Positions 32,154-62,556 of a stretch of DNA of 64,000 nucleotides are shown piece by piece. How positions within the stretch are numbered: position 1 is the first letter of the stretch; each line of letters begins with the position of its first letter. The notes under the pieces were generated by a model, which was not told the DNA's origin, searched no databases, and saw nothing but the letters and a program-made list of their open reading frames with translations. Made by a program: the position numbers and the translations under genes. This stretch comes from Streptomyces sp. DT2A-34 (GTDB lineage Bacteria > Actinomycetota > Actinomycetes > Streptomycetales > Streptomycetaceae), in assembly GCF_030499515.1 (NCBI RefSeq), contig NZ_JASTWJ010000001.1, positions 1,984,001-2,048,000 on the forward strand, given 5' to 3'.

Positions 32154-35100
32154 CTAGGACTTGTCGGGCGGCGGCAGCAACCCGGCCGTGACGAAGTAGG
32201 AGAAGCACCGTTCGAGGATCTCGGGACCGACGGCCGGGAAGTCCCAGCCGGCGTCGGCGAGCCCCGCGAGGAGGTTGCGTCGGTCGTAGCGTGTGGGGAG
32301 GTTGCCCGGCGCGGTGTCAGACCCGCTGCTGAGGAGGGCGACGGCGTGGAGGGAGCCGATCCGGGAGACGGGGGTGTCGGCGGCGGCGTTCTCCACCCGT
32401 TTCCGCCATACGGACGGGGAGACCCGTTCCATGGGGTACCCGAACTCCTGCGCGTAGTCGAGCACGGCGTCCGCGGCGGTGCTCGCGGGGGCGGCGATGT
32501 TGTAGGTCCGGCCGTCGGGCCGCTGTGTGAGGGCCAGATGGACGAAGGCGCGCGCGGCGAAGTCCACCGGCACCAGGTTCTGCCGCTCGACGGTGCCGTC
32601 GTCGCGCACGGGCCGGGCCCCGATCTCGGCGCAGGCCCGCACCTTGTGCCAGAACGCGTCGTCGGGCCCCATGGCCCCGGTCTCGGTGTGGCCGCTGATC
32701 CGGGCCAGCCGGTACGTCGCGGTCGGGATGCCGCGCTCGCGAGCCAGCCGGCCGATGGCTTCCCCGACCCACTTGGTGCACACGTAGCCGTTGGTCCCGA
32801 TGGCGTCCGGAGGGCTCAGCCAGTCCTCCGGCAGCGTGTCGGGGTCCTGGCCGGGAGCGGCGGCCAGGGTGCCGACCGTCGAGATCTGGTGCACGGGCTT
32901 GATCCGGTGGCGGGCCGCGAAGCGGAACACCTCCTGGACGCCCGAGACGTTCGCGGCGCGCAACTGGCCATAGGGCTCAAGGTGGTTGACCCGAGCTCCG
33001 TTGTGGTAGACCGCGTCGATCCGGCGGGCGAGGTCGTCGAAACGGTCGGCGGGCAGTCCGAGCAGCGGCTCGGCCAGGTCGCCGGGAACGGGCACGATCC
33101 GGGCGCCGAACCGGTCGTCCCACAGGCCGTAGCGTTCCTGGCTGCGCCGCAGTCGCGCCAGCGCGTCGGCCGGGGTGCCGGCTCGTACCAGGCAGTAGAC
33201 GTCGGCGGAGGTGCGTTCCAGGACCTCCCGGAGGATGAACGACCCCACGAACCCGGTGGCCCCGGTCAGCAGGACGGCGGCTGGCGCGGCGAAGTCCGGG
33301 CCGTCGTAGCCGCCTTGCGCGGTGATCGACGGGTCGAGGGAGACCTCGGCGGCGAGGTCCGGCAGCGCCTGCCCCTCGGCCCCGGTCTCCTCGTCCGTGC
33401 CGTCCGCTCCGAGCAGGGCGTCCAGCGCTGCCGGCGTCTCGTGCTCGAAGATCACGTTCAGGGGAAGGGCCGTGCCGAAGCGCTGGTTGACCGCGCGGGC
33501 CAGGCGGACCGTGAGGAGCGAGTGTCCGCCGAGCGCGAAGAATCCGTCGTCGAGGCCGATCTCCCGCACCCCCAGGGTCTCCGCGAAGAGTTCGCACAGC
33601 GTCTGCTGCCGTGCGGTGAGCGGTTGCTCCCGCGGTGTCCGGGCGCTTCCCCGAGCCTCTGGTTCCGGCGCCGGCAGCGCGTCGCGGTCCACCTTTCCGT
33701 TGGGTGTCAGGGGCAGCCGGTCCAGCACCACGATCGCCGACGGCACCAGGTACTCCGGCAGGCGCTCCTGCACATAAACGCGTACGTCGTCGGTCACCGC
33801 GGTGGTTTCCCCCGAATCGGAGGCGGCCACGACGTAGGCGACGAGCCGTTGGTCGTCGGGCCGGTCCTGACGGACGATCACCTTCGCCTGCGCAAGCCGG
33901 GGATGGGCCGCGAGGACCGCCTCGATCTCACCCGGCTCGATCCGGAAGCCCCGTACCTTGACCTGCTCATCGGCGCGCCCGAGGAACTCCAGCTCTCCGT
34001 CACGCCGCCACCGCACCACGTCGCCCGTGCGGTACATCCGCGACCCCGCCAGGCCGTACGGGCCTGCGACGAACCGCTCGGCGGTCAGACCCGGCCGGCC
34101 GAGGTACCCGCGCGCCAGCCCCGGTCCGGCCACGTACAGCTCCCCGGCCACCCCGGTCGGCACCGGCCGCAGGCCGGCGTCCAGCACGAAGGCGTGCGTG
34201 TTCGCGATCGGCCGGCCGATCGGCGGCGGCGTCGGGCTGAGCGCTGAGAGCGGCTCGCTCAGGGTGGCGCACACCGTGGCCTCGGTCGGGCCGTACGCGT
34301 TGATCAGCCGGCGGCCGACCGACCACCGTTCCACCAGGCCGGGCGGGCATGCCTCGCCGCCGACCACCAGCGTCGTCGACGGCGGGACGTCGTCCTCGGC
34401 CACGGCGGCCAGGACCGACGGGGGCACCAGGGCGTGTGTCACCGCGAGCCGCCGGTCGGTGAGGGCGGCCAGCGGTTCGGTGGCCGGGGCCAGGACCAGG
34501 GTGGCGCCGGACAGCAGGGCGTTGGTGATGTCCCAGAACGACGCGTCGAAGCTCAGCGAGGCGAACTGGAGGATGCGGCTGCCGTCGTCGATGGCCAGCC
34601 GTTCGACGGTGGCCGCGTGGAGGGCACCGACGCCCGCGTAGCTGACCACCACCCCTTTCGGCCGGCCGGTCGAGCCCGACGTGTAGATCACGTACGCGGG
34701 CTGCCGGGCATCCACCGGCACCTCGGGGTCGGTCTCCGGATACGCCTGCGTCTCCCGCACGGTCCGCGGATCGTCCACGATCAGCGAGGGGCGGGCGTCG
34801 CTCAGCATGAACTCGATCCGCGACCGCGGGTACTCCGGGTCCACCGGCAAGTAGGCCGCCCCCGCCTTGAGGACGCCCAGCACCGCCACGACGAGTTCGG
34901 GCGAGCGCGGCAGGACGAGGGCGACGATCTGCTCGGCGCCCACGCCGCGCTCCCTCAGCAGGTGCGCGAACCGGTTGGCCCGGCGATTCAGTTCCGCGTA
35001 GGTGAGCGACAGGTCCCCGGCCGCCACCGCGACTGCGTCCGGTGCCATGGCCACCCGCGCCTCGAACGCCTTCGGGACGATGTCCTCGGCCCCCTCCGTC

Positions 35101-38100
35101 ACGCCGTCCGCACCGCCGCTCAGCAGCCGCGCGCGCTCGTCGCCGGAGAGCACGTCGACGCGGTCCACCGGCGTGTCGGGATCCGCGACCACGGCTTCGA
35201 GCAGGCGCGTCCAGCGGGCGACCAGCGTTTCGACGGTGGCGGGGTCGAACAGGTCGGTGGCGTACTCGACGGCGCCGGTCACTCCGCCGAAGCCGCCGTC
35301 GGGCCGGTACCGCTCCCGCAGGTTGAAGACGAGGTCGAACTTGGCGGTCCTGACGGGCATCGGCAGGGTGGACACGTGCAGCCCCGGCAGGTCGAACTCG
35401 CCGAGCGGCACGTTCTGCAGCGCCAGGATCGTCTGGAAGAGCGGGTTGTACGACAGGGTCCGCGCCGGGTTGAGGACCTCGACGAGGCTCTCGAACGGCA
35501 TGTCCTGATGGGTGAACGCCGCGAGCGCGTTCTCCCGGACGCGGCCCAGCAGTTCGCTGAACGTCGGGTCGCCCGAGGTGTCGGTGCGCAGTACCAGGGT
35601 GTTGACGAAGCAGCCGACCAGTTCGTCGAGTTCCTGGTCGGTGCGGCCGGCGATGGGGCTGCCGATGGAGATGTCGGTGCCCGCGCCGAGCCGGGTGAAC
35701 AACGCGGCGAGCGCGGCCTGCAGGACCATGAACATGCTGCTGCCGGTGCGCCGGCACATGTCCGCCAGCCCGGCGTGCAGTTCCGGGCTCAGCTCGACCC
35801 TGACGATGTCGCCGCGGTGCGAGGCCACCGGCGGCCGGGGCCGGTCGGCCGGCAGTCGCAGGTGCTCCGGCAGTCCGGCCAGCTGCCGTGTCCAGTAGGC
35901 CAGTTGCCGGGCGAACAGGCTGCCGTCGTCGGACTCCTCGCCCAGCAGCTCGCGCTGCCACAGCGTGTAGTCCGCGTACTGCACGGGCAGGTCCGGCCAG
36001 TCCGGCTCCAACCCCTGGCAGCGTGCCGCGTACGCGGCGGCCAGGTCGCGGGCGAGCGGTGTCATGGACCAGCCGTCGCCGGCGATGTGGTGCACCAACA
36101 CCTGGAGGACCTGTTCGTCGGGGGCCAGCGTGAACAGCTCGGCCCTCAGCGGCATTTCGGCGCCCAGGTCGAAGCGGTACTCCGTCGCCTCGGTCAGCCG
36201 CGCGTCCAGCCCCGCCGCGTCGGTCTCGCTCACCCTCAGCTCGGGACGCGCCTGCCCAGCGTCCAGAATGCGCTGGAAGGGCACGCCGGCCACCTCGGCG
36301 AACACCGTCCGCAGGCTTTCGTGCCGGCCCACCACATCCGCGAGGGCCGCCTCCAGAGCCGCCCGGTCCAGTCGGCCGGACAGCCGCAGCGTGAGCGGAA
36401 CGTTGTAGGTGGTGCTCGGGCCTTCCAGCTGGTATAGGAACCACAGGCGGCGCTGGGCGAACGACAGCGGCACCCGCTCCGGGCGCCGCACCGCCTTCAG
36501 GACCGGACGCACCGAGTCGTCCCGGTCGAGGAGCTGGGCGAGACCGGCGACCGTCGGCGCCTTGAAGACGTCCCGCGCGGACAGCTCCGCGCCCAGCAGT
36601 GCCCGTGTCCTCGCCACGAGCCGCATGACCAGCAGCGACTGGCCCCCGAGCGCGAAGAAGTCGTCGTCGACTCCCACGCGCGGCAGGCCGAGCAGTTCGG
36701 CGAACACCCCGCACAGCACTTCTTCCTGGGGTGTGCGCGGCGGGCGCAGCGTCACCAGGGCCGAGTCGGGCGCGGGCAGCGCACGCCGGTCCAGCTTCCC
36801 GTTGGCCGTCAGCGGGAGGGCCTTCAGGACGACGAACGCCGTCGGGACCATGTAGTCGGGCAGCGCCCTCATCGCGAAGTCCCGCACGGACGCCGTGTCC
36901 AGGTGCGCGGTGTGCGCCCCGGCTCCGGCGGGCGCGGCCGGGACGAGGTAGGCGACCAGGTTCCGGCCGGAGCCGGGCCGGTCCTCCCGGACGACGACCG
37001 CCGTCTGCCGCACTTCCGGGTGCCGCAGCAGGGCCGTTTCGATCTCGCCCGGCTCGATGCGGAAGCCGCGGATCTTGACCTGGTCGTCGGCCCGGCCCAG
37101 GTATTCCAGCTGGCCGTCCGGGCGCCGCCGCACGAGGTCCCCGGTCCGGTACATCCGCTGCCCGCCGGGTTCGAACGGGCACGCCACGAACCGGCCGGCG
37201 GTCAGCCCCGCGCGCCCTGCGTACCCGCGCGCGAGGCCCGCGCCCGCGACGTACAGCTCGCCCGTCGCTCCCGCCGGTACCAGCCGCAGTGCCGTGTCGA
37301 CCACGTACAGGCGGGTGTTCGCCACCGGCCGGCCGATCGGCACGCCGTCGTCGGTGTCCGCGAACACCCGGCCGCCGGTGGCGTCCACGGTGACCTCGGT
37401 CGGGCCGTACAGGTTGTAGACCTCCACGGGCAGCAGCCGCGTCACGCGGTCGATCACGTCCTGGGGCAGCGCCTCACCGCCGCACAGCACCTGCCGCAGG
37501 CTCGTGCAGTGTGCCACGTCCGGCTCGTCGACGAACACGTCCAGCATCGACGGGACGAACTGGACGCACGTCACCTGCTCGCCGGCGATCACCTCGGTGA
37601 GGTAGTGCGCGTCCTGGTGCCCGCCGGGCCTGGCCAGCACCAGGCTCGCGCCCACCGTCAGCGGCCAGAACAGCTCGATCACCGATCCGTCGAACGTCAC
37701 CGGCGTCTTCAGCAGCACCCGGTCGTCCAAAGTCAGCCGGCACGTCCGCTGCAGCCAGCTCACGTAGTTGGCCAGGCCGCGGTGGGGTACGACCACGCCC
37801 TTGGGGCCGCCGGTGGACCCGGAGGTGAAGATGATGTACGCGGGGTGGGTGTCGCGCAGGGGGCTGGTGCGGTCCTCGTCGGTGGGGCGCGTCGCCGGCA
37901 GCGTGGCCAGGGCGTCGGTCGTCGGCGGTTCGTCGAGGACGGTGACCGTGACACCGGCGACCGCGGGCAGGGACTCGGCGGTCGCGGCGGTGACGAGCGC
38001 GAGCCGGGGTCGCACGTCCTGAAGCATGGAGGTGATCCGGTCGGCGGGATGGTCCGGGTCGACCGGCAGATACGCCGCGCCGGCCTTCAGGACCGCGAGC

Positions 38101-39689
38101 GTGGCGACCATCATCCGTATGCCGCGCGGGACGGCGATCGCGACGATGTCCTCCGGGCCCACCGCCCGGCCGATCATCCAGTGCGCGAGCCGGTTCGCGC
38201 GCTCGTCCAGCTCCCGGTAGGTCAGCGGCCCTTCGTCCTCGTCGGGGCTGATCAGCGCCACCGCGTCCGGGGTGCGTTCCACCTGGGCCTGGAACAGTTC
38301 CACCCAGCCGCCGTCGTGCAGGTCGTCCACGGAGCCGGTCCGCTCCGTCAGCAGCAGGCGGCGTTCGTCCTCGCCGAGCAGGTCCAGTTGCCCGGCCCGT
38401 GCCTGCGGGTCGGCGACGGCCTGCTCCACGAGGCGCTCCAGCCGTGCCGCGAGTTCCGCCACCGCCGTCTCGTCGAACAGGTCGGCGCGGTGGTCCAGGC
38501 GGAGCAGGAGCGCGGACTCCGGTACGACGATGAGGGCCAGGGAGTAGTGCGGGGAGTCTCCTCCCGTGGTGGCGACGGTGAGGTGCGCGGCCGGGGTGGA
38601 GTACTGCTGACCGGCGTGCGGATAGTTCTGGAAGACCATCACCGTGTCGAAGAGGTCGCCGCCGGTGTCGGTGTCGGCGAGGCGCTGGATGTGGGAGAGG
38701 CCGAGGTGCTGGTGGGGCAGGAGGGCCGCCTGTTCGCCCTGGATCCGTGCCGCGAGGTCGCCGACCGGCTCGTCGGCGCGCAGCCTCACCCTGAGGGGGA
38801 GGGTGTTGATGAACAGGCCGACCATCGAGTCGACGTCGGCGAGTTCGGCGGGCCGGCCCGAGACGGTGATGCCGAAAACCACGTCCTCCCGTCCCGTCAT
38901 GCCGGACAGCAGCAGCGCCCAGCACATCTGCATCACGGTGTTGACCGTCACGCCCCGCGCGCGCGCCCAGTCCCCCAGCCGGCTGGTCAGGGCCTCGGGG
39001 AACCGGTGGGTCACCACACCGCGCCGGACCGCGCTGCGGACGACCTCGTGCCCCGGCGCGAGCAGTGACGGCGCCGACAGGCCCGCCATCGCCTCCCGCC
39101 ACGCCGCCAGCGCCGCGTCGCGGTCCTGCCCGGCCAGCCATGCCACGTAAGAACGGTAGGAGGCGGCGGGCGCCAGCCCCGTGTCCTCCCCGCCCCGCTC
39201 GTACAGCGCCACCAGCTCCCGCACCAGCAGAGGCAGCGACCAGCCGTCCCACAGGATGTGGTGGTTGGTCAGCACCAAGCGGTACCGGCGCTCGCCGAGC
39301 CGCAGCAGGACGAACCTGACCAGAGGCGGTCTGGCCATGTCGAACCTGGTCCGGTACTCCTCCTGCGCCACGGCGCGCGCCCGCTTCTCGGCCGTCTCCG
39401 CGCTCTCGTCCGAGACGTCGACCTCACGCCACGGCACCGTGACGTCATTCGCCACCACCTGCACGGGGCCGCTCGCGCCCATGGTCAGGAATCCGGCCCG
39501 CAGATTGGGGTGGCGCCGCAGCAGCGTCACGGCCGCCGCGTGCAGGGCCGCCGGGTCGACCTCCCCTTCCAGGTGGAGGCTCATCTGCCGGTTGTAGACG
39601 TCACCTCCGTCGGCCTCGTACTCCGCGTGGAACAACAGCCCTTCCTGCAGCGGCGCGAGCGGCCAGACGTCCTCGATCCCGAATTCCAT
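32154..39689 (-). CDS. Non-ribosomal peptide synthetase NrpsA, C-A-T-C-A-T-R (terminal reductase)
   Basis: Two-module synthetase of 2,511 aa, probably the last in the assembly line. C1 (about 1-440) has an intact HHILWDG (catalytic His144) and begins [15 protein letters not shown], the style of C domains that follow an epimerase. A1 spans about 470-960, T1 has phosphopantetheine Ser1018, C2 has HHIAGDG, A2 spans about 1500-1980, and T2 has Ser2057. A thioester reductase follows (about 2130-2511) with TGATGFVGS and the YxxxK motif in GYVCTKW, instead of a thioesterase. Pocket codes read by eye against GrsA are A1 DGIQLGLVD(K) and A2 DAWLVGAVC(K). A2 looks hydrophobic/aromatic; A1 is unassigned. 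Release as an aldehyde or alcohol is expected. The ATG lies 42 bases behind nrpsB. Confidence 0.93.
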
Positions 39690-39731: not shown

Positions 39732-42700
39732 TCAGTTCCTGGAGTTCAGCGCGCGCCAGACGCTTTCGAGATCGTCGATCTGCTGCTGGTCGAGCGAGAC
39801 GAGCGGCACGTCGGACGGGGTCCGGCCGCCGGCGTCGGGCCGGCTCGCGCCGGTGACGACCGTGGTGAGCGCGGTGCGCCACAGGGCGGCCAGGCGGCCG
39901 AGGTCCTCGGCTCCGAGCGTGCCGCCGGGAGCGGAGAGGGTGGCCTGGAGCACGGGTCCGCCGCCGTCCTCGTTGGCCACGGCGTTGATCTCGACGCCGC
40001 CGCTCGCGGTTGCCCCGGACGACTCGGCCGCGAGGCCGTGCGCCTCCGGGGCGCGGGTCCACGGAGTGGTCGCCCCGGCGGCTCTGGTGACGCGGCCCAG
40101 GTAGTTGAACGTGATCTGCGGGTGGGGCAGTGCGGCGAGGCGCGGGGCGGTCTCGGGATTGAGGTAGCGCAGCAGTCCGTAGCCGAGGCCCTTGTCGGGG
40201 GCCCGGCGCACCAGTTCCTTGACGTGCTTGACGGCCTGGCCGACCGCCGCGCCCGCGAGGACGTCCCGTGTGGCGTCCAGCGAGCCGAGGTCGAGCCGGA
40301 CCGGGCGGCACACGGTGAACCAGCCGACCGTGCGGGAGAGGTCAATACCGCGCGGCATGCTGTCGACGGCCTGCCGGCCGTGGCTCTCCAGCCCGACGAC
40401 CAACGGGCCTCCCCCGCCCGCGCGCGGCCCGCGCCAGCGCTGGAACGCCATGGTCAGGGCGGTGAGCAGGACGTCCTCGACGGTGGCATGGAAGGCCGCC
40501 GGTATGTCGGTGAGCAGCGGGAGCGTCTCCTCACGCGGCAGGGTCACCGTGACGGAGGACGCCGGGCCCGTGCCCGCCTCCCTCACGCCCGGCAGGGGTT
40601 CGACGTCGCTCAGGACGGCGGACCAGTGCGGGAGTTCGGCGGCCCGAGCGGGCCGGCCGGCCTCGGCCGTGAGGGCGCGGGCCCAGGTGCGGAACGAGGT
40701 GGCGACCCGGTCGAGCGACCGGACACCGTCGCGGTCGGCGTCGGCGTCGGCGGCCAGGTCCCAGGCGCGGGCCAGGTCCGGCAGGAGAACGCCCCAGGAC
40801 ACGGCGTCGACGGCGAGGTGGTGGATCACCAGCAGCAGCCGGCCCGGCTCCCGCGGACCGGCGTCGAACCAGACGGCCTGGACGACACGGCCGGAGTACG
40901 GGTCCAGACGTCCGCGCGCGGCCTCGGCCTCGGCCCGGACGACCCTCTGCCGCTCCTCGCTCCAGGGGCCCGAGGCAGTGCCCTGGGCGTCGCCGTGCGG
41001 GCCGGTGACGTCGACGCGGGTGAGGCAGGCCGCGGGGTCGGCCGAGCCGCGCGGCGCGATGTCCAGTTCCCAGGGCTGCGACGGCCCGGTGGTGATCCGC
41101 AGCCGCAGTGTGTCGTGGTGGTCGAGCAGGAGACCCAGCGCGGCGGCGAGGCGGGCCTCGTCCGCGTCCGGCGGGACCACCAGCAGCAGGGTCTGGTTGA
41201 ACTCCTCGACGGGGCCGCCGCGTTGCAGGCGCTCGTGCATGACGGCGGTCAGCGGGACCGCTCCGGTTCCGTCGTCGGCGCTCCCGGCGTGCTCCTCCTC
41301 GTCCGCGACGTCCGCGGCCACGGCGGCGAGCCGGGCCGGTGTCTTTTGCTCGAAGACGTCCCGTACCGAGATCGCCAGGCCCTGTGCCCGAGCCCTGCTG
41401 ACGAGCTGGATCGACAGGATGCTGTCCCCGCCGACGGTGAAGAAGTCGTCGTCGACGCCGACGCAGGGCAGCGCGAGGAGGTCGGCGAACAGCCCGCACA
41501 GCACCTCCTCGCGCGGGGTCCGGGGTGCGCGGCCGGCCGTCGTGGTGAAGTCCGGCGCGGGCAGCGCCCGCCGGTCCAGCTTCCCGTTCGGCGACAGCGG
41601 CAGTCCGGGGAGGGCGACGCACACGGCGGGCACCAGGGAGTCCGGCAGCAGCCCGGCGACGAACCGCCGGACCTCCGCCACGTCCAGCGCGTCGGACGCC
41701 CTGCCGGGGCCGGCGGCGGGCACGAGGTAGCCGACCAGCCGCCTGGTGCCCACGGAGTCCTCGTGCACCGTCACGGCCGCCTGGCCGACGGCCTCGTGGC
41801 GCAGCAGGGCGGCCTCGACCTCGCCGGGCTCGATGCGCACCCCGCGGATCTTGACCTGCTCGTCCGTCCGTCCCAGGTGCTCCAGCTGTCCGTCGCCGCG
41901 CCGGCGCACCACGTCCCCGGTCCGGTACATGCGCTCCCCGGAGCCGAACGGGCAGGCCACGAAGCGTTCGGCGGTCAGCGCGGCGCGGCCGGCGTAGCCG
42001 CGCGCGAGCCCCTCGGCGGCGACGTACAACTCCCCCGCGACCCCCGGCGGTACCGGTCGCAGCGCCGGGTCCAGCACGTACAGGCGGGTGTTGGACACGG
42101 GCCGGCCGACGGTCACCGCCTCGCCCGGCAGCGCCTGGCAGGCGGAGACGAAGACGGTGGTCTCAGTGGGGCCGTAGGTGTTGTGGACCGGGATCCCCAG
42201 CAGCTCGGTCGCGGCGGTGACGGTCGCCGCGGGCAGTGCCTCGCCGCCGCACATCACCCACTTCAGCCCCGTGCAGCGGGCGGCGGCCGGCTCCTGCGTG
42301 AACACCTCCAGCATCGACGGCACGAAATGCACGGCGGACACGGCCTCGGCGGCGATGACCTCCGCGATGTACCGCGGGTCCTGCTGGCCGCCGGGCCGCG
42401 CCAGCACGACGGCCGCGCCCGTCGTCAGCGGCCACAGCAGCTCGATCACCGACGCGTCGAAGGTGACCGGCGACTTGTGCAGCATCCGGTCGTCGGGCGC
42501 CAGCCGGTACTCCCGCTGCAGCCACTGCGCGAAGTCGACCAGCCCCCGGCGGTGGATCACCACGCCCTTGGGGCGGCCGGTCGAGCCCGAGGTGTGGACG
42601 ACATAGGCGGGGTGGGCCGGCAGCAGCGGACGCGGCCGGTCCCCGGCGGTGGGATCGCTACCCGGCAGCGCGTTCAGCTCCCGCACGACGTCCGGGGCGT

Positions 42701-49111: not shown

Positions 49112-49304
49112 TCGTTTCTCACTCCTGCGGAGCGACTCTGCGGCATGCCCGCTGTGCTGGGATTTCGGCAGTCTAGGGTCGGGCCGGTGCATCGCCGCAT
49201 CACCAGCCTTGGTAGTGGTCGCCGACTACTCACTCAGGTGATGTGTGGTGCCGGCGGCCCGTGCCACTGTCGGTCCGGTAGGCACGCGAAAGAGACGAGG
49301 TGCC
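49112..49304. promoter_or_regulatory. Divergent promoter region of the peptide cluster
   Basis: All leftward (ccr-nrpsB-nrpsA) and rightward (nrpsC onward) core genes diverge from here. An imperfect palindrome AGTGGTCG-C-CGACTACT lies at 49214-49230 with one mismatch and could be an operator. I cannot place -10/-35 elements confidently. Confidence 0.4.
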
Positions 49305-52300: not shown

Positions 52301-52424
52301 CGTCCGGCTCGCGGCCCGCGCCCAGACCGAGCTCGGCACCCACATCACCCTCCGCGACGTCTTCCACACCCCCACCCCCGTCGGCCTGGCCCGTGTGCAC
52401 GCAGACCGGCTCGGTCCGGCGTGA
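49305..52424 (+). CDS. Non-ribosomal peptide synthetase NrpsC, C-A-T with degenerate C domain
   Basis: Single-module synthetase of 1,039 aa. ATG 49305 ([20 protein letters not shown]) has GAGG upstream; the frame is open from 49245. The C domain (about 8-420) is EntF-like, but its active-site motif reads YHQIMGD, so Gln139 stands where NrpsB has catalytic His139. Condensation is therefore doubtful. The A domain (about 450-930) has [11 protein letters not shown] and [16 protein letters not shown] and the by-eye code DVRHMSLVD(K), nearly identical to NrpsB A1. The carrier domain has Ser996 in LGGDSLLA. There is no TE, E or docking domain that I can recognise. It probably loads the first residue and heads the rightward operon. 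Confidence 0.92.
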
Positions 52425-54114: not shown

Positions 54115-54345
54115 GTGGCCGACAACCCCTTCGACGACGAGGACAGCACGTTCCTCGTACTGGTCAACGACGAGAACCAGCACTCGCTCTGGCCCCTTTT
54201 CGCCGACGTCCCGGCGGGCTGGAGCACCGTGCACGGCCCGGCTCCCCGCGCCGCGTGCCTGGACTACATCGAGCGTGAGTGGACCGACATGCGTCCCGCG
54301 AGCCTCGTACGCGCCATGAGCGCGGCCGCCGAGGGCGACCGGTAG
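54115..54345 (+). CDS. MbtH-like protein
   Basis: Small NRPS accessory protein, 76 aa, that binds and activates adenylation domains. It carries the family signature: [31 protein letters not shown], and EREWTDMRP with the conserved Trp residues. The start is GTG at 54115, with AAAGGA about 8 bases upstream. It lies 32 bases behind the CoA-transferase genes and 49 before hmaS, inside the biosynthetic operon. Confidence 0.97.
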
Positions 54346-54394: not shown

Positions 54395-55417
54395 ATGACT
54401 GTTCACGGCATCGCGTATCTCGACCTCTACACACAGGACCGGGCGTCCACGACCGACTACTTCGCCGGCCTGGGCTTCACGCCGATCGCGGAGTCCCAGG
54501 GCGACGATCGCAGCTCCACCCTGCTCCGGCAGGGCGACCTGCGGCTCGCCGTGACGTCGGGACCGGCGGTGCGGGACTTCCTGGACAAGCACGGGGACGG
54601 TGTCGCGGACATAGCCCTGACCTGTGACGACGTCTCGGCGGCCGTGGGGCGCGCGGTGGCGGCCGGTGCGGCCGACCTCGGTTCCCCCTACAGCGCGCCC
54701 GTCGTGTCGGGGTTCGGGGACGTACGGCACACCCTGCTGCCCGTGGCCGAGGGCGACCCCGGCCGGACTCCGCCCACCGGCCGCTGGATGCCGGTCGCGG
54801 CCTCCGTCCCGCGGCCGCCGCAGACCGTCCGGCTGCTGGACCACATCGCGGTCTGCGTCGAGGGCGGCCGACTCGGCGAGTACGCCGACTTCTACCGGGA
54901 CGCCTTCGCCTTCACGCACTACTCGGCCGAGTACGTGGCGCTCGGCGGGCAGGCCATGGACTCCGTCGTGGTGCGCAGCGCGTCGGAGAACGTCACCTTC
55001 ACCCTGGTCGCACCCGACCCCGGCAAGGAGGCCGGCCAGCTCGAAGCCTTCCTGGAGCGCAACGGGGGGCCCGGAGTGCAGCATCTGGCGTTCCTCGTCG
55101 ACGACATCGTCTCCGCGGTGCGCCGGTTCCGGGAGGACGGGGGCGTGGAGTTCCTGAGCACGCCGGACAGCTACTACGACATGCTCAGCGACCGGCTGCC
55201 CGACCTGGCGGACCGGATCGAGGACCTACAGGACGCGCAGGTGCTGGCCGACAGCGACGAGTGGGGGCATCTGATGCAGTTGTTCACCAAGTCACCGTAC
55301 GAACGCAACACCCTCTTCTTCGAGCTGATTCAGCGTCAGGGCTCGCGAGGGTTCGGCAGCGCGAACATCCGGGCCCTGTACGAGGCCGTCGAGCGCGACC
55401 GGCTCGCCGCCTCGTGA
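54395..55417 (+). CDS. hmaS: 4-hydroxymandelate synthase
   Basis: Non-haem Fe(II) dioxygenase, 340 aa, converting 4-hydroxyphenylpyruvate to (S)-4-hydroxymandelate, the first step to 4-hydroxyphenylglycine. The three iron ligands are His150 (LLDHIAV), His230 (GVQHLAF) and Glu310 (LFFELI), with the same spacing as in known HmaS. It is related to hydroxyphenylpyruvate dioxygenase; the ending GFGSANIRALYEAVERD and the gene neighbours Hmo and HpgT mark it as HmaS rather than HPPD. GGAG lies 6 bases before the ATG. The stop overlaps the next gene's GTG. Confidence 0.95.
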   Translation: MTVHGIAYLDLYTQDRASTTDYFAGLGFTPIAESQGDDRSSTLLRQGDLRLAVTSGPAVRDFLDKHGDGVADIALTCDDVSAAVGRAVAAGAADLGSPYSAPVVSGFGDVRHTLLPVAEGDPGRTPPTGRWMPVAASVPRPPQTVRLLDHIAVCVEGGRLGEYADFYRDAFAFTHYSAEYVALGGQAMDSVVVRSASENVTFTLVAPDPGKEAGQLEAFLERNGGPGVQHLAFLVDDIVSAVRRFREDGGVEFLSTPDSYYDMLSDRLPDLADRIEDLQDAQVLADSDEWGHLMQLFTKSPYERNTLFFELIQRQGSRGFGSANIRALYEAVERDRLAAS

Positions 55418-57942
55418 CCGCCTCTGCCGGTCGCGCCACAGCCGTGAACATGTTCACCCTGACCGACTACGCCGGACAGGCCCGCACGATGCTGCCGGGG
55501 AGTGTCTGGGACTTCATCGAGGGCGGCGCCGGCGAGGAACGGACGCTCGCCGCCAACCGGGCGGCCTTCGACCGGGTACGGCTGTTCCCGCGAGCGCTGT
55601 CCGGCACGGACCGGCCCTCCCTCGCGACCACGGTCCTCGGCCGCACCTGGCGGACCCCCTTTGCCGTCGCCCCCATGGCCTACCACCGGCTGGCCCACCC
55701 GGCCGGCGAGGTCGCGACCGCGCAGGCCGCCGGGGCCGCCGGAGTGCCCCTGGTGGTGAGCACGTTCGCGAGCCGCACCTTCGAGGACATCAAGGCGGCG
55801 GCCGGCGGCCCGCTGTGGCTCCAGGTGTACTGCTTCCAGGACCGCTCCCTGACGCGGGACCTCGTCGCACGCGCCGAGAGCGCCGGCTTCGAAGCCCTGG
55901 TCCTGACCGTCGACGCCCCCATCCTGGGCAGCCGTCACCGGGACCTGCGCAACCGTTTCCGGCTCCCCGAGGACATCGGGCCCGTCAACCTTCCCGACGG
56001 CGAGTTCTCCTCGCCCGGCGACCACGCGCGCGCCGAGTTCGCCCCCGCTCTCGACTGGTCGGTCGTCGAGTGGCTGCGGGGCGTCAGCGCGCTGCCGGTG
56101 CTGGTCAAGGGGGTGCTCACCGCGTCCGACGCCCGGCTGGCGCTGGCCGCGGGGGCCACCGGCGTCGTGGTGTCCAACCACGGCGGACGGCAGCTGGACG
56201 GCGCCCCGGCCACGCTGGACGTGCTGCCCGAGATCGCGGCGGCGGTCGCGGGCGCCTGCCCGGTGCTCCTGGACAGCGGCGTGCGCCGCGGGTCCGACAT
56301 CCTGGCGGCTCTGGCGTCCGGTGCCGACGGGGTGCTGGTGGGGCGGCCCGTCCTGCACGGCCTGACCGTGGCGCGCGAGGTCGGCGCCCAGCATGTGCTG
56401 GACATCCTGGCGAGTGAGCTGGCGGAAGCGATGATCCTCACCGGCACGTCCTCGACCGGCGAGGTGGCTCCGGCCCTGCTCGGCCCGCAGAGCGAGGTGG
56501 CTCCGGCCCTGCTCGGCCCGCGTGCCCCTGCCACGCCACCCCATATGTCCGGCTCCACCGCCTCGGACCCCGCGCTTCCCGGCCCGCGCGCCAACTCCGT
56601 CCCGCCCCCGCCCGCTCCGCAATCCGCTCACGACCTGCGGAAGGCGGATCTGCACGGCAGTCTGCGGGACCCGCTGCTCGACACGATGACCTTCCTCAAC
56701 GAGATCACCGACCGCTACCCCGCGGCGGTCTCGTTCGCTCCGGGCCGTCCCTACGACGGCTTCTTCGACACCGAGGACGTCTTCAAGAGCCTGCGCCGCT
56801 ACCTCGACCACCTGGAGGCCGGCGGTGCCTCGCCCGGCCAGGTGCGCTCCGCTCTCTTCCAGTACGGCCCCACGGCCGGCCAGATCCGCGAGGTAATCGC
56901 CGACTGGCTGCGCGAACACGAGGGCATCGACATCCCGGCGGAGTCCGTCGTCGTGACGGTCGGCTGCCAGGAGGCGATCCTCCTGGCGATCCGCGCCCTC
57001 ATCTCGGCTCCCGAGGACGTCCTGCTCGTCTCCAGTCCCTGCTACGTCGGCGCCACCGGCGCGGCACGGCTGCTCGACGCCGAGGTGACCGCGGTCCCCG
57101 AGGGCCCGGAGGGACTGCGCTGCGCCGACCTGAGGGCGGTCGTCCGACGGGAGCGGGCGCGTGGACGCCGGCCCCGCGCCTTCTACCTGGTCCCCGACCA
57201 CGCCAACCCGTCCGGGGCGACGCTGCCCCTCGCCACGCGACGGGAACTGCTCGACCTGGCGGCCCAAGAGGACATCCTCCTCCTGGAGGACAGCCCCTAC
57301 CGGCTGGTGAGCCCTGGCGAGCGGCTGCCGACTCTCAAGTCCCTCGACCGCGACCGGCGGGTCGTGCACCTGGGCTCGCTGGCCAAGACTCTCTTTCCGG
57401 GTGCCCGAGTCGGCTTCGCCGTCGCGGACCAGACCGTCGTGGACGAGACGACGGGTGCGCGCGTGCTGCTGGCGGACGAACTCGCCAAGCTCAAGAGCAT
57501 GGTGACGGTGAACACGTCACCGGTGACGCAGGCCGTCGTCGCGGGCATGCTGCTCGCCGAGGGCGGCCGTGCCACGGAGCACGGCGTAGAGGCGGCGGCC
57601 CGTTACGGCGACGCGATGCGGACCGTGCTGGAGCAGCTCGACGCGGCCTTCCCCTTGCCGGAGCGGACCGCGCTGGGTGTCAGCTGGAACAGGCCCTCGG
57701 GCGGTTTCTTCCTGACCGTGACGGTGCCCTTCGCAGCCGACGAAGCGGCTTTGGCCCGCTCCGCGGAGAAGTTCGGTGTCATCTGGACGCCTATGTCCTA
57801 TTTCTATCCGGACGGCGGCGGGGAGAATGCGCTGCGGCTTTCGGTGAGTTACCTCTCGCCGCCGGACATTGTCGAAGGGGTCGCCCGTCTCGCGCGATTC
57901 ATCACGTCGTGCCGCGCCGTTCCGGCCGTTTCGGAAATCTGA
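55414..57942 (+). CDS. hmo-hpgT: Fused 4-hydroxymandelate oxidase and 4-hydroxyphenylglycine aminotransferase
   Basis: Bifunctional protein of 842 aa. Residues 1-345 are an FMN-dependent alpha-hydroxy acid oxidase (Hmo) with WDFIEGGAGEERT, WLQVYCFQD, VKGVLTASDA, and catalytic His256 and Arg259 in SNHGGRQLDG. Residues about 410-842 are a fold-type I PLP aminotransferase (HpgT) with DHANPSG and PLP-binding Lys658 in GSLAKTLFPGARVGF. Together they turn 4-hydroxymandelate into 4-hydroxyphenylglyoxylate and then Hpg. The Pro/Ala/Ser-rich linker includes an 11-residue unit in tandem duplicate. GTG 55414 overlaps the hmaS stop; the open frame upstream is a shadow. In CDA-type clusters these are separate genes. 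Confidence 0.94.
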   Translation: MTASAGRATAVNMFTLTDYAGQARTMLPGSVWDFIEGGAGEERTLAANRAAFDRVRLFPRALSGTDRPSLATTVLGRTWRTPFAVAPMAYHRLAHPAGEVATAQAAGAAGVPLVVSTFASRTFEDIKAAAGGPLWLQVYCFQDRSLTRDLVARAESAGFEALVLTVDAPILGSRHRDLRNRFRLPEDIGPVNLPDGEFSSPGDHARAEFAPALDWSVVEWLRGVSALPVLVKGVLTASDARLALAAGATGVVVSNHGGRQLDGAPATLDVLPEIAAAVAGACPVLLDSGVRRGSDILAALASGADGVLVGRPVLHGLTVAREVGAQHVLDILASELAEAMILTGTSSTGEVAPALLGPQSEVAPALLGPRAPATPPHMSGSTASDPALPGPRANSVPPPPAPQSAHDLRKADLHGSLRDPLLDTMTFLNEITDRYPAAVSFAPGRPYDGFFDTEDVFKSLRRYLDHLEAGGASPGQVRSALFQYGPTAGQIREVIADWLREHEGIDIPAESVVVTVGCQEAILLAIRALISAPEDVLLVSSPCYVGATGAARLLDAEVTAVPEGPEGLRCADLRAVVRRERARGRRPRAFYLVPDHANPSGATLPLATRRELLDLAAQEDILLLEDSPYRLVSPGERLPTLKSLDRDRRVVHLGSLAKTLFPGARVGFAVADQTVVDETTGARVLLADELAKLKSMVTVNTSPVTQAVVAGMLLAEGGRATEHGVEAAARYGDAMRTVLEQLDAAFPLPERTALGVSWNRPSGGFFLTVTVPFAADEAALARSAEKFGVIWTPMSYFYPDGGGENALRLSVSYLSPPDIVEGVARLARFITSCRAVPAVSEI
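56459..56521 (+). repeat. Perfect 30-base tandem repeat in the Hmo-HpgT linker
   Basis: Thirty bases (56459-56488) recur unchanged at 56492-56521, a period of 33 bases or 11 codons. They encode EVAPALLGP twice within the interdomain linker. The period keeps the reading frame, so the linker has grown by duplication without harm. Confidence 0.9.
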
Positions 57943-57952
57943 GGGCAACCGC

Positions 57953-59160
57953 ATGGAACACGACATCAGTTCACTCGTAGAAGGCGCGACCTACAAAACC
58001 GGCAACCCTTTCGAGGTCTGGCTGTGGATGCGCGAGAACGCCCCGTCGTCCACCACGATGCCGGACAGTTCGGCGCGATCTGGTCTCTGACGCGGTTCGC
58101 CGACATCAAGGCCGTTCTCCGCGACGCGGACACGTTCACCTCGTCGTCCGGGATCCTGCTCCGGCCGGTGGCGCAAGGCGGCGATCCGGGCGGCGACAAG
58201 ACCCTCGCGCTGTCCGACGACGCAGCGGCACACCACCCTGCGTTCCGCGGTCGCCGGCTGGTTCGCTCCTCGCAATCTCCGGTTGCTGACGGAGTCGATG
58301 GAGGCCGCCGCACGCGGCATCGTGTCCGACGCCGTATCGAATTCCCGTGTCGACTTCGTCACCGAGGTCGCGGCGAGACTTCCGCTGGAAGTGGTGTGGA
58401 CCTTCTTCGACATCCCCGCGAACGACCGGGCCGCGGTCACCGGTTGGTCGATGGACGCCTTCTGCGCGACGACCGCGGTCGAGCGCACTATCGCGCACCT
58501 GGAGATCCTCGAATACTGCAGTTCCCTCGCGAAGAAGCGCCGGGAGCAACCGGGCGACGACCTGGTGAGTGTGCTGGCCGGAATCGAGTTCGAGGGACGG
58601 CTCCTCCCGATGGAAGAGGTGGTGCTGAACTGCGACAACCTGTTGGTCGGCGGCACGAGAACGTCCGCCTCGCGCTGGCCGGCGGCATTCACTCCCTGAT
58701 CGACCACCCGGACCAGTGGGCCCTGCTCCGGGACGATTTCAGCCGGGTGATTCCCACCGCCGTGGACGAGATCCTGAGGTGGACGGCCAGCGCCACGCAC
58801 CTGGTGCGGACCGCGCGCCAGGACACGGTGATCGGCGGGCAGCGGATCCGCCGCGGTGACCGTGTGGTGCTGTGGCTGCCCTCGGCCAACCGGGATCCGG
58901 ACGAGTTCACCGACGCGGACAGGTTCGACCTGACCAGGACGCCGAACCGGCACCTCTCGCTCGGCAGCGGGCCCCATCACTGCATCGGCGTCCAGCTCGC
59001 CAAGCTGGAGATCCGGGCCGTGCTCCAGGAGCTGACCGGCCAGGTGCACCGGATCGTCCAGTACGAGCAGGCCGAACGCCTGGACTCCATCGTCGTCAAT
59101 GGATTCCGTACGCTGCCGGTCCAGTTGGAGCCGCGCGCGTCGGTGCGTGTCCTGGAGTGA
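57953..59160 (+). pseudogene. Cytochrome P450, reading frame broken at three points
   Basis: The translated pieces join into one bacterial P450 of about 400 aa: MEHDISSLVEGATYKTGNPF, then SLTRFADIKAVLRDADTF, WTFFDIPANDRAAVTGW, NLLVGG-ENVRLALAGG (I helix), EILRWTASATHLVRTA (ExxR-like region) and the haem loop LSLGSGPHHCIG. The frame changes at about 58041-58044 (one base missing in a C run), about 58226-58228 (one base extra) and about 58654-58657 (one base missing). The longest continuous piece runs from there to 59160. It lies 10 bases behind hmo-hpgT and resembles P450s that hydroxylate or cross-link carrier-bound residues, but the substrate is unknown. Either a decaying gene or uncorrected sequencing errors would explain the shifts. 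Confidence 0.85.
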
Positions 59161-59235
59161 GCGTTCCTTGGGATGTGAAAGGGCAGGACGGCGATCCCGG
59201 TGTACGCGTGATCCGCACAGAGGCAAGGTGAGTTG

Positions 59236-60618
59236 ATGTCCCGGCGCACCTCGGGACCCCAGCCGGGGCTGTGGCGGAACGCGGACTTCCGCAACCTCTG
59301 GTTCGGGCTGACGGCGTCGCTCTTCGGCGCCAAGATCACCGCGATCGCCGTGCCTCTGATCGCGAGCCGCACGCTGCACGCCACACCGCTGGAGATGGGC
59401 TCGCTCGTGGCGATGGAGTACCTGCCCTACCTGGTCATCAGCCTGGCCGCCGGCGTCTGGCTCGACCGCCGGTCAGAGCTGCCCCTGCTGATCGCGAGTG
59501 ACATCGCCCGCGCCGGTCTGCTCATGGCCGTTCCGGTGGTCTGGTTCCTCGACGTCCTGTCGGTCCCCCTGCTCCTCGCCGTGGCGCTCCTCATCGGGTG
59601 CTGCACCGTCGTCTCGGACATCGGCAGTACGTCGTACCTGCCCTCGCTCGTCGGCCGCGACCAACTGATCGAGGGCAACAGCAAGCTGGAGCTGAGCAGT
59701 TCCGCCTCCAACATCGGCGGCAACGCGCTGGGCGGAGTGGTGCTCCAACTGGTCTCAGCGCCCCTGACGCTGATGTTCAACTCGGCGGCGTACCTGCTGT
59801 CCGCCGCGTTCACCTTCCGCATCCGGCACCGGGAGCCGGAGCGGCAGGTTCACGACCGGCGGCCGGGCATGTTCCAGGAGGTACGCGAGGGCGTCCAGGC
59901 GGTCTTCGGGCACCCCACCATCCGCAGGATCGTCCTGGCCACCATGATCTTCAACTTCTTCACCTTCGTCATCGAGCCGGTCCTGCTGCTCTTCCTCACC
60001 CGGACCCTGGACCTGCCGGCCTTCTCCATCGGCCTGGTCTTCTCCGCGTCCGGTGCCGGGGCCCTCACCGGGGCGCTGATCGCCGGACGGGTGAGCCGCC
60101 GCCTCGGCCTGGGCCGCACGCTCGTCGGCTCGCTGCTCTCGGCAGGTGTGGCCGCGCTGCTGATCCCCGCCACTGCCCTGGTTCCCTCCTGGTCCGCCCC
60201 CTTCATCATCGTCATCGTGTACTTCGTCAACTCCGTGATAGTGATCGTCTACAACGTCAACCAGCGCAGTCTGCGCGCCGCCCTGACTCCCGACCGGCTC
60301 CAGGGCCGGATGAACGCGTCGATCCGCATGGTGGTCATGGGCGTGGCACCCGCCGGAGCCTTCCTCGGCGGCGCACTCGGCAACTGGCTCGGCACCCTGC
60401 CGGTCCTCGTCCTCGGCGCCGCCGGAATCATGCTGGCCAGTTGCTCCCTGCTCCTCTCCCACGTCCGGACGGTCGCCGCGCTCCCGGTCCTGGCGGACGC
60501 CGCCTCCTCGACCGCGCCCCCGGTGAGAGGCCGCCGGACCGGAGAGGCCCATGAAGAGCGGGGTACGCCTGGGTCACGGGTCGGCCACGGACCGTTCGAA
60601 AGGGTGGATTCCGGGTGA
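59236..60618 (+). CDS. MFS transporter, probable product exporter
   Basis: Major facilitator of the EntS/MFS_3 type, 460 aa with 10-12 helices. It starts MSRRTSGPQPGLWRNADFRNLWFGL and has GVWLDRRSELPLL between helices 2 and 3. ATG 59236 is preferred to TTG 59233, with AGGTGAG upstream. Relatives export siderophores and peptides. It sits directly behind the P450 in the operon, so it probably exports the peptide product. The hydrophilic C-terminal tail of about 40 residues overlaps nothing known. Confidence 0.88.
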   Translation: MSRRTSGPQPGLWRNADFRNLWFGLTASLFGAKITAIAVPLIASRTLHATPLEMGSLVAMEYLPYLVISLAAGVWLDRRSELPLLIASDIARAGLLMAVPVVWFLDVLSVPLLLAVALLIGCCTVVSDIGSTSYLPSLVGRDQLIEGNSKLELSSSASNIGGNALGGVVLQLVSAPLTLMFNSAAYLLSAAFTFRIRHREPERQVHDRRPGMFQEVREGVQAVFGHPTIRRIVLATMIFNFFTFVIEPVLLLFLTRTLDLPAFSIGLVFSASGAGALTGALIAGRVSRRLGLGRTLVGSLLSAGVAALLIPATALVPSWSAPFIIVIVYFVNSVIVIVYNVNQRSLRAALTPDRLQGRMNASIRMVVMGVAPAGAFLGGALGNWLGTLPVLVLGAAGIMLASCSLLLSHVRTVAALPVLADAASSTAPPVRGRRTGEAHEERGTPGSRVGHGPFERVDSG

Positions 60619-60628
60619 TCGTCGAGCC

Positions 60629-61797: not shown

Positions 61798-62556
61798 TCA
61801 GCGATCATCGGGCTGGATTCTCGCCAAGACAGCCTCGGCGACTGCCGATACCTGATCACCGATGTAGAAGTGACCTCCGGGGAATCCCCTCAATTCGAAA
61901 TCGCCAGCAGTGTGGTCCCGCCACGCCTCCAGATCATCACGTGTCAAATCTGTGTCCTGGTCACCGAAGAAGGTGAAAATGGGACAGGTGAGCGCGGAAC
62001 CAGGCGCACAGGAATACGTCTCACTGGCTGTGAAGTCGCTTCGGATGGCCGGAAGGAAAAGGCTCAGTACGCTGTCGTCGGCAAGAACCTCGGAGTCCGT
62101 CCCGTTCAATCTCCTGATCTCCTTGAGCAAATCGATGTCGCTCAGGAGGTGAAACCGCTCTGCACGCGGTCGCGAAGGGGCACGGCGCGCGGAGACAAAG
62201 AGGGCGGATGGTGCATCACCTTGGGCTTCGAGACGCCTGGCGATCTCGAATGCGAGCGCCGCGCCCATACTGTGCCCGAACAACACCAGACGACGACCCC
62301 GCAGCGAAGAAATCGCGTCAACGATTTGATCGGCCAACGCCTCCAGACTGTTCACTGCGCTCTCATTGAGGCGTTCCCCGCGCCCTGGATACTGCACAGC
62401 ACAGACCTCTACGGAGGAAGACAGGGCCGCAGACAGCGGAAAAAAGTAACTGGCCGATCCGCCCGCATGGGGAAGACAGAGCACACGGGTACGCGCTTCC
62501 GGCGCCGGATGGAAACGCCGTATCCACGCATCATGCTCCGGCTTGGCAGTCGACAT
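61798..62556 (-). CDS. Type II thioesterase
   Basis: Discrete alpha/beta-hydrolase of 252 aa that hydrolyses wrong or stalled acyl groups from NRPS carrier proteins. It shows LCLPHAGGSASYFFPL, YPGRGERL, the nucleophile elbow GHSMGA with Ser96, the Asp region FFGDQDTDLT, and the catalytic His229 in PGGHFYIG. The synthetases here have no integral thioesterase, so this is the only thioesterase seen in the cluster. It lies 33 bases behind the luxR gene on the same strand. Base composition is clearly lower in GC than the synthetase genes. Confidence 0.93.
   Translation of the reverse strand: MSTAKPEHDAWIRRFHPAPEARTRVLCLPHAGGSASYFFPLSAALSSSVEVCAVQYPGRGERLNESAVNSLEALADQIVDAISSLRGRRLVLFGHSMGAALAFEIARRLEAQGDAPSALFVSARRAPSRPRAERFHLLSDIDLLKEIRRLNGTDSEVLADDSVLSLFLPAIRSDFTASETYSCAPGSALTCPIFTFFGDQDTDLTRDDLEAWRDHTAGDFELRGFPGGHFYIGDQVSAVAEAVLARIQPDDR

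What the first reader, a model, noticed from the sequence alone, without database searches (positions are those of the whole stretch)
32154..62556. Orphan five-module NRPS cluster combining Hpg supply, acyl-CoA chemistry and reductive release
Seen: three synthetases (C-A-T; C-A-T-C-A-T-E; C-A-T-C-A-T-R), complete HmaS/Hmo/HpgT, MbtH, Ccr, a CoA-transferase pair, P450, exporter, type II TE and LuxR regulator. Known: HmaS/Hmo/HpgT make 4-hydroxyphenylglycine, and terminal R domains release aldehydes or alcohols. Inferred: a short Hpg-containing peptide aldehyde, alcohol or cyclic imine whose extra building block comes from CoA-ester chemistry. I recall no characterised pathway with this set of genes.
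Basis: partly seen in the sequence, partly recalled or inferred. Interest (0 to 1): 0.8.

Follow-up and report, generated by a model that had tools for sequence, protein, structure and literature searches.

The report
Orphan hydroxyphenylglycine peptide gene cluster
A Streptomyces genome carries an uncharacterised assembly line that probably makes a short peptide aldehyde or alcohol containing hydroxyphenylglycine, and nearly the same gene set is found in three other Streptomyces genomes.

Summary
The cluster is real and a unit of its own. The synthetases are C-A-T, C-A-T-C-A-T-E and C-A-T-C-A-T-R. Synthetases, Ccr, CoA-transferase pair, MbtH, HmaS and Hmo-HpgT recur in S. ipomoeae, partly assembled in S. 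niveiscabiei, and in unnamed Streptomyces G014. A second Hpg gene set lies in a CDA-like cluster of the same genome. (2) Hmo and HpgT are fused, a known arrangement. (3) No A domain has the known Hpg signature; A1-A4 form one cluster-specific clade near mostly Ser-type domains, with signatures seen only in this cluster among 337 domains. (4) Two proteins begin with an initiation-type C domain, and in C-A-T the catalytic His is replaced in all 4 copies compared, so a linear five-module order is unproven. (5) The CoA-transferase is PcaIJ-like and keeps its Glu. Best reading: a reductively released Hpg peptide with a CoA-derived cap. No described pathway was found in the searches made; MIBiG was not available.

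The parts
32154..39689 (-). NRPS-R, 2511 aa, C-A4-T-C-A5-T-R; A4 signature DGIQLGLVD, A5 DAWLVGAVC; terminal thioester reductase
   Evidence: Pfam; NCBIfam TIGR01746 277 bits (cut-off 213); signatures; R motifs; MxaA best PDB match
39732..47669 (-). NRPS-E, 2645 aa, C(initiation type)-A2-T-C-A3-T-E; A2 DVRHMSLVE, A3 DAIHMGTVF; E domain expected to epimerise the A3 residue
   Evidence: Pfam; signatures; C and E motifs; first C domain 59% to that of C-A-T
47774..49192 (-). crotonyl-CoA carboxylase/reductase (Ccr), 472 aa; recalled CO2-pocket residues kept
   Evidence: TIGR01751 587 bits; PDB CCRs; motifs and orthologues at 92-93%
49305..52424 (+). C-A1-T protein, 1039 aa; initiation-type C domain with HQIMGDI in place of HHxxxDG; A1 DVRHMSLVD
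   Evidence: Pfam; motif the same in all 4 copies compared; PDB relatives; homologues
52470..53294 (+). CoA-transferase subunit A (PcaI/GctA-like)
   Evidence: PF01144; glutaconate CoA-transferase 1poi_A best
53291..54082 (+). CoA-transferase subunit B (PcaJ/GctB-like), start inferred; Glu of YESG kept
   Evidence: PF01144; 1poi_B best; Glu; tree
54115..54345 (+). MbtH-like protein
   Evidence: PF03621 (no NCBIfam match)
54395..55417 (+). 4-hydroxymandelate synthase HmaS (HPPD family; reading rests on kinship and neighbours)
   Evidence: Passes the HPPD model TIGR01263 (315 bits, cut-off 277); 53% to the HmaS of the second Hpg cluster against 38% to the third family copy of this genome; best PDB match 3zgj is labelled HPPD, second is 2r5v (recalled as HmaS)
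55414..57942 (+). fused Hmo-HpgT (4-hydroxymandelate oxidase + hydroxyphenylglycine aminotransferase), start inferred
   Evidence: FMN_dh and Aminotran_1_2 in one ORF; 4-hydroxymandelate oxidase structures among best
57953..59160 (+). cytochrome P450, broken (frame lost more than once); open copies exist in S. ipomoeae (L169) and G014 (L108)
59233..60618 (+). MFS exporter
   Evidence: PF07690; 93% in S. ipomoeae
61798..62556 (-). type II thioesterase
   Evidence: PF00975; 88% in S. ipomoeae
62590..63972 (-). LuxR-type regulator, start inferred
   Evidence: PF00196; 81% in S. ipomoeae

Best explanation
An orphan biosynthetic cluster for a short (four or five residue) nonribosomal peptide that contains 4-hydroxyphenylglycine and is released by a reductase domain as a C-terminal aldehyde or amino alcohol. 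Shown: domain order; intact E, R, Ccr and CoA-transferase motifs; an Hpg gene set; recurrence of the set in three other Streptomyces genomes. Inferred: HmaS and Hmo-HpgT make L-Hpg. A3, the enlarged-pocket domain followed by E, loads it (D-Hpg in the product). A1 and A2 load one and the same Ser-like or acidic polar amino acid (Arg at pocket position 239). A5 loads an aromatic residue that becomes the aldehyde or alcohol. The CoA-transferase and Ccr make a short branched or dicarboxylic CoA ester (ethylmalonyl type), used as the N-terminal cap by the initiation-type C domain of NRPS-E. The C-A-T protein, whose C domain has lost its catalytic His, acts as a loading partner.
For: Architecture. 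Same set in S. ipomoeae, S. niveiscabiei (partly assembled) and G014. Own Hpg genes, apart from the CDA-like cluster. Ccr is one of four in the genome and 92-93% identical in the orthologous clusters against 74-77% to the two paralogues of this genome compared. CoA-transferase Glu kept; the window, S. ipomoeae and S. niveiscabiei copies branch apart from 29 others; kept in S. ipomoeae, whose assembly has no PcaH over cut-off. Best solved relatives of the C-A-T C domain include CDA synthetase I and EntF. Precedent: R-domain release to an alcohol in rotihibin (PMC8552735, passages).
Against: No A domain has the Hpg signature DIYHLGLLC/DVYHLGLLC; the assignment to A3 rests on pocket reasoning only. 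The protein read as HmaS passes the HPPD model and its best PDB match is labelled HPPD. No ketosynthase, ACP or acyl ligase was seen, but only the main ORFs of 15.4-64 kb and 3 ORFs of the 20-kb right flank were scanned, so the fate of ethylmalonyl-CoA is open. Two initiation-type C domains make the order unsure. The P450 is broken in this strain. The G014 CoA-transferase is not placed securely with the other BGC copies.
Confidence: 0.5

Rival explanations
1. The Hpg is not taken by A3 but by A4 (or by both), and the product has internal Hpg next to the reduced aromatic residue.
For: A4 (DGIQLGLVD) has an even more opened pocket (G236, I239, G301) than A3 and, like A3, lies in the clade near Ser-type domains.
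Against: A4 lacks the H278 seen in Hpg signatures and shares Q278-L299-G301-L322 with the signature DILQLGLIW found in this genome (read as Gly from recall).
Confidence: 0.25
2. The C-A-T protein forms a ureido link or other non-peptide bond between two copies of the same amino acid (A1 = A2), as single-module C-A-T proteins do in syringolin-type pathways (recalled), with the CoA genes serving something else.
For: A1 and A2 carry near-identical signatures (domains 79% identical), and both proteins start with the same type of C domain (59% identical).
Against: The C domain of the C-A-T protein has lost the catalytic His in all 4 copies compared. No test of ureido chemistry was possible.
Confidence: 0.12
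3. The CoA-transferase pair is a catabolic pcaIJ (3-oxoadipate) pair that happens to lie here and has nothing to do with the peptide.
For: Its nearest relatives in the genus (32 of 392 genomes at 68% identity or more, own and G014 included) look, where I read the neighbours, like pca-operon genes; for G165 a PcaH over cut-off lies about 1.4 kb downstream. This genome has a PcaH over cut-off but no second CoA-transferase B at E <= 1e-30.
Against: The pair lies between C-A-T and MbtH in the window, S. ipomoeae and S. niveiscabiei, and beside MbtH, TEII and HmaS in G014. The S. ipomoeae assembly keeps it while showing no PcaH over cut-off (best 64 bits against 296).
Confidence: 0.15
4. The cluster is decaying in this strain and makes nothing, or only a des-oxidised product, because its P450 is broken.
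For: The P450 reads in different frames along its length while two relatives have an open gene.
Against: The other genes from 32154 to 57942 (about 26 kb) are open. The P450 still matches the open relative closely in each frame, so the loss is recent or an assembly error.
Confidence: 0.2

Closest known systems
Rotihibin cluster of S. scabies (PMC8552735; passages seen)
   Same: Streptomyces NRPS with terminal R domain, MbtH and type II TE; R gives an amino alcohol (asparaginol); also listed for S. ipomoeae strains
   Different: One pentamodular NRPS plus a separate unimodular one, FAAL, ACP and acyl-CoA dehydrogenases; none of its listed genes is for Hpg, Ccr or a CoA-transferase
Hpg supply of enduracidin / epoxinnamide (PMC9321520; passages seen)
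   Same: HmaS plus a fused oxidase-aminotransferase protein
   Different: Epoxinnamide is a deca-depsipeptide from an NRPS with a TE, and its cluster has a prephenate dehydrogenase; none was identified among the cluster genes annotated here
Calcium-dependent antibiotic (CDA) type lipopeptides
   Same: Hpg genes and an acyl-initiation C domain (CDA synthetase I is among the best solved relatives of the C-A-T C domain)
   Different: Eleven residues (recalled); an Hpg domain with the usual signature; a CDA-like cluster is present separately in this genome
Myxochelin-type and MxaA reductase domains
   Same: NCBIfam MxcG matches NRPS-R through its last module and R domain, below that model's cut-off; MxaA 4u7w is the best solved R domain
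   Different: No aryl-acid starter gene seen; five A domains
PcaIJ / glutaconate CoA-transferases
   Same: Both subunits, with Glu in YESG aligned to that of GctB
   Different: Sits in an NRPS cluster; the copies of the window, S. ipomoeae and S. niveiscabiei form their own branch

Membership tests
Crotonyl-CoA carboxylase/reductase | TIGR01751 over its cut-off | tested here: met
   587 bits against 378.6
Crotonyl-CoA carboxylase/reductase | CO2-pocket residues (recalled: Asn, Phe-Glu, His) | tested here: met
   [22 protein letters not shown] here and the equivalents in the 8 other copies compared
Family I CoA-transferase (PcaIJ/Gct type) | Two subunits, Glu in subunit B | tested here: met
   below the NCBIfam cut-offs of the pcaI/pcaJ and acetate models
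AibAB-type decarboxylase / IpdAB-type hydrolase | CoA-transferase fold without the Glu (recalled) | tested here: not met
   Glu present; the three AibB rows printed have no Glu at that column (they may be variants there)
Hpg pathway | HmaS, Hmo and HpgT together | tested here: met
   HmaS as against HPPD is by kinship and neighbours; fusion known from enduracidin
Hpg-activating A domain | Signature like D[IV]YHLGLLC | tested here: not met
   None of the 5 A domains; reference signatures and the CDA-like cluster of the genome
NRPS terminal reductase (R) domain | Rossmann motif and Thr/Ser-Tyr-Lys residues | tested here: met
   [17 protein letters not shown] here and in G014; TIGR01746 over cut-off
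Catalytic condensation domain (HHxxxDG) | Second His of HHxxxDG in the C domain of the C-A-T protein | tested here: not met
   HQIMGDI in the window and 3 relatives
Acyl-initiation (starter) C domain | Sequence relation to CDA C1 / EntF type | tested here: met
   C-A-T C domain: best solved relatives 7c1k group, 4jn3, 5ja1; NRPS-E first C domain by 59% identity to it
Rotihibin-type cluster | FAAL, ACP, acyl-CoA dehydrogenases, one pentamodular NRPS | tested here: not met
   None among the cluster genes; gene list
A known product cluster | Same gene order in MIBiG | not testable with these tools
   MIBiG is not held; the text searches showed none

The most novel reading that the evidence does not exclude
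The cluster shows an A-domain family re-tooled inside one cluster: four of its five A domains descend from one Ser-activating domain and were diverted to Hpg and to a dicarboxylic or alkylmalonate-like unit made by Ccr plus a PcaIJ-type transferase, so that the peptide carries an ethylmalonyl-derived residue or cap joined by non-canonical (His-less) initiation C-domain chemistry.
Probability: 0.15. Interest if true: 0.75.

Novelty: new variant of a known kind. Interest (0 to 1): 0.45.

Why it matters
Orphan NRPS clusters are common, but this one combines Hpg supply, a reductive carboxylase and a CoA-transferase with reductive release, is found in at least four Streptomyces (both named species, S. 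ipomoeae and S. niveiscabiei, are known to me as plant pathogens), and uses A domains whose signatures I found in no paper searched. Working out what A1-A4 load would give a clean case of specificity drift from one ancestor, and would show what a Ccr does in an NRPS cluster in which no polyketide synthase was seen.

Tried and rejected
Thought of the CoA-transferase/Ccr set as an AibAB/AibC-like isovaleryl route (recalled): rejected, because the Glu is present and the reductase is a true CCR. Thought the Hpg genes might serve the other Hpg cluster: rejected, it has its own set. Thought the cluster might track thaxtomin production: rejected, the TxtE model is over cut-off in S. ipomoeae and S. 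niveiscabiei only, not in this genome or G014. Thought the near-equal contig length of Streptomyces sp. ST1015 (10,171,198 against 10,171,054) meant the same strain: rejected, its C-A-T is 86% identical with substitutions spread along it. The PHROG scan of the neighbouring response regulator was uninformative; that regulator showed no match in the G014 stretches beside NRPS-R.

Controls, samples and dropped rows: the 337 A domains come largely from loci chosen by similarity to the C-A-T protein, so Ser-type domains are over-represented. They include a duplicate stretch (L145/L156). Besides this cluster one further row showed Arg at 239, with a signature (VTRNMAGSV) that I take for a misalignment. 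The tree used 133 of the 337: those of the window, L001, L002, L156 and the own 7.3-Mb region, plus one per other signature. Clades outside A1-A4 have mixed support there (0.61 for the next fork, 0.91 for the group of 26). Of the 31 other genomes with a CoA-transferase B of at least 68% identity, loci of 29 with about 1.5-kb flanks were compared with the window genes (two rows had no locus), and only G014 showed further cluster genes; longer neighbourhoods were read for 5 of them (G014, G372, G165, G119, G384) and for G105 (56%), with gene names read by eye from N-termini, except PcaH of G165. An earlier count said 33 genomes and 'sit in pca clusters'; the recount is 32 and the wider statement is not shown.
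Full report
WHAT IS THERE. The window is G000:C1:1984001-2048000 of a 10.3-Mb genome in two contigs. That it is a Streptomyces is inferred: the nearest named relatives of the C-A-T protein are S. niveiscabiei, S. ipomoeae and Streptomyces sp. ST1015. Two divergent operons meet at about 49.2-49.3 kb. Leftward: Ccr, NRPS-E (C-A-T-C-A-T-E), NRPS-R (C-A-T-C-A-T-R). Rightward: C-A-T, CoA-transferase A and B, MbtH, HmaS, fused Hmo-HpgT, P450, MFS exporter; then, on the other strand, a LuxR regulator and a type II thioesterase. To the right of the window lie a gene with a DDE_3 transposase-like domain, then aconitase and argininosuccinate synthase, so I take the LuxR gene as the right border. The nearest other condensation-domain match of the genome outside the cluster is about 0.12 Mb away. 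No ketosynthase was seen among the ORFs scanned (main ORFs of 15.4-64 kb; 3 ORFs to the right); no separate ketosynthase search was made.

IT IS A CONSERVED UNIT. S. ipomoeae 91-03 has the N-terminal half of C-A-T (90%), Ccr 93%, NRPS-E 88-90% and the first 1717 residues of NRPS-R (93%) on one contig, and the C-A-T end, CoA-transferases (95-96%), MbtH, HmaS, Hmo-HpgT, P450, MFS, LuxR and TEII on another. S. niveiscabiei has the start of NRPS-E (79%), Ccr (93%) and C-A-T (87%) on one short contig and the C-A-T end, CoA-transferases (96%), MbtH, HmaS and part of Hmo on another; its NRPS-R was not looked for. An unnamed Streptomyces, G014, has NRPS-R 86%, NRPS-E 83-84%, Ccr 92% and both ends of C-A-T (86%, 83%) on broken contigs, with CoA-transferases (87%, 79%), MbtH 76%, HmaS 69%, Hmo-HpgT 74% and P450 in a changed order; its TEII (41%), MFS (33%) and LuxR (39%) may be other genes. 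In 30 CoA-transferase loci from the genus (own included), only those of this genome and G014 have further cluster genes beside them. In the protein search (7990 candidates scored, 120 of 279 listed) three clusters of C-A-T proteins stand at 85% identity or more: the window itself, a 7-member one named for Streptomyces sp. ST1015, and a 16-member S. ipomoeae one covering 58%. The next best is 53%.

HPG SUPPLY. The HmaS candidate is 53% identical to the HmaS of the second Hpg cluster of this genome and 38% to the third family copy. It passes the HPPD model, and its best PDB match is labelled HPPD, the second being 2r5v, so the HmaS reading rests on kinship and on standing beside Hmo-HpgT and MbtH. 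Hmo-HpgT is one ORF; after entries of about 720-736 aa labelled L-lactate oxidase, its first half matches solved 4-hydroxymandelate oxidases best. Such a fusion is described for enduracidin (PMC9321520, passages), so it is not new. At 7.26-7.31 Mb the genome has NRPSs with eleven A signatures in the order Ser, Thr, Trp, Asp, Asp, Hpg, Asp, Gly, Asn-like, unknown, Trp (readings recalled), which is the order I recall for CDA, with HmaS, Hmo and HpgT stretches beside it and an MbtH some 10 kb on. The window genes are therefore not needed there.

SPECIFICITY. Signatures (nine variable positions) are A1 DVRHMSLVD, A2 DVRHMSLVE, A3 DAIHMGTVF, A4 DGIQLGLVD, A5 DAWLVGAVC. The orthologous domains extracted agree (A1 in S. 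niveiscabiei; A2-A4 in S. ipomoeae; A2-A5 in G014), except that A2 reads ...VD in S. ipomoeae and G014. A1-A4 are 61-79% identical to each other and, in the best 25 matches, 52-62% to Ser-type domains. In a FastTree of 133 domains they and their orthologues form a clade with support 1.0, inside a larger group (26 rows, 0.91) of mostly Ser-type domains. The sample was drawn by similarity to C-A-T, so it favours Ser types. The CDA-like Hpg domain (DVYHLGLLC) ranks 144th to 202nd for A1-A4. A published Hpg signature is DIYHLGLLCK (PMC9113097, passage); a published Ser signature is DVWHFSLVDK (PMC3795760, passage). No paper of the held library contains the searched stretches of these signatures. 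Hpg is thus supplied, but by sequence no module is an ordinary Hpg module. A3 is my first choice: it keeps H278 and has G301, has lost the Ser-type W239 and S301, and is followed by an E domain. A5 is nearest to mixed, partly aromatic-type signatures (weak support beyond the first neighbour). All of this is inference.

INITIATION. The C domain of C-A-T and the first C domain of NRPS-E are 59% identical. The former's best solved relatives are 7c1k and kin (recalled as the rhizomide starter C domain), CDA synthetase I and EntF, that is, domains that take an acyl group from CoA or a carrier protein (recalled). In C-A-T the second His of HHxxxDG is Gln in all 4 copies compared; in NRPS-E the motif is HHLI(G/S)DA with both His kept. 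A plain collinear five-module reading is therefore not secure: NRPS-E may start the chain and C-A-T may load a partner residue.

COA CHEMISTRY. Ccr groups with crotonyl-CoA CCRs (829 bits to 3hzz; 486 to octenoyl-CoA CCR 4a0s; 231 to AntE), and its recalled CO2-pocket residues are kept. The genome has three more true Ccr copies at 76-77%, so a cluster copy is not strictly needed for ethylmalonyl-CoA. The CoA-transferase pair resembles glutaconate CoA-transferase in the PDB, and in the genus resembles pairs which, where I read the neighbours, stand in pca-type operons (PcaH confirmed for G165). The B-subunit tree puts 29 other copies on one side with support 99/99, and the window, S. ipomoeae and S. 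niveiscabiei copies together with 99/92; the G014 copy is not placed securely. The Glu is kept in the 4 BGC copies and in the 7 other close copies compared, and is absent from 2 distant relatives. The S. ipomoeae draft shows no PcaH over cut-off, while this genome, G014 and S. niveiscabiei do have one. I infer that the pair was recruited from a 3-oxoadipate-type transferase and now makes or breaks a short dicarboxylic CoA ester together with Ccr.

RELEASE. The R domain has an intact Rossmann motif, Thr and YxxxK, with MxaA as best solved relative. Aldehyde or alcohol release follows from the family; rotihibin gives the nearest precedent, an alcohol (PMC8552735, passages). Whether it is two- or four-electron reduction is not shown. 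G014 carries an aldo-keto reductase among these genes, which would fit further reduction there; the window has none in the cluster.

RESULTS AGAINST THE READING. The P450 is broken in this strain. No A domain matches Hpg. The HmaS candidate passes the HPPD model. No partner for ethylmalonyl-CoA is known. The cluster is not linked to thaxtomin: the TxtE model is under cut-off in this genome and G014, over it in S. ipomoeae and S. niveiscabiei.

LITERATURE. Ten searches of the held library listed no paper seen to treat this gene set; one search listed 15 of 3,345. Papers seen as passages only: PMC8552735, PMC9321520, PMC11355689, PMC9113097, PMC3795760. All others were seen in listings only. MIBiG and most subscription papers were not searched, so 'uncharacterised' is bounded by that.

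Noticed in passing
G000:C1:7262001-7362000 (L157-L161): A CDA-like NRPS cluster with HmaS, Hmo and HpgT stretches (whether fused was not checked) and an MbtH nearby, followed on the other strand by a further NRPS set with unusual signatures DAYHSGTAF and DAYHTGAAF.
   Followed up: partly
window 57953-59160: Cytochrome P450 that loses frame more than once; two relatives have an open copy. Recent loss or assembly error.
   Followed up: partly
window 60551-61790: Two weak ORFs between exporter and thioesterase; one (61008-61790) has a partial APH phosphotransferase-family match.
   Followed up: no
L167:814-2154 (genome 2048814-2050154); L169:3638-5083: DDE_3/transposase-like gene right next to the LuxR end of the cluster, and an ORF that looked like another transposase by eye between exporter and LuxR in S. 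ipomoeae: possible insertion traces.
   Followed up: partly
G000:C1:8988846, 1386187, 619322: Three further crotonyl-CoA carboxylase/reductase genes at 76-77% identity in the same genome.
   Followed up: no
window 15432-28973: Outside the cluster: VanZ-like protein, two-component system, beta-galactosidase, ABC transporter parts, acetyl xylan esterase, LPMO with a cellulose-binding domain, glycosyltransferase.
   Followed up: no
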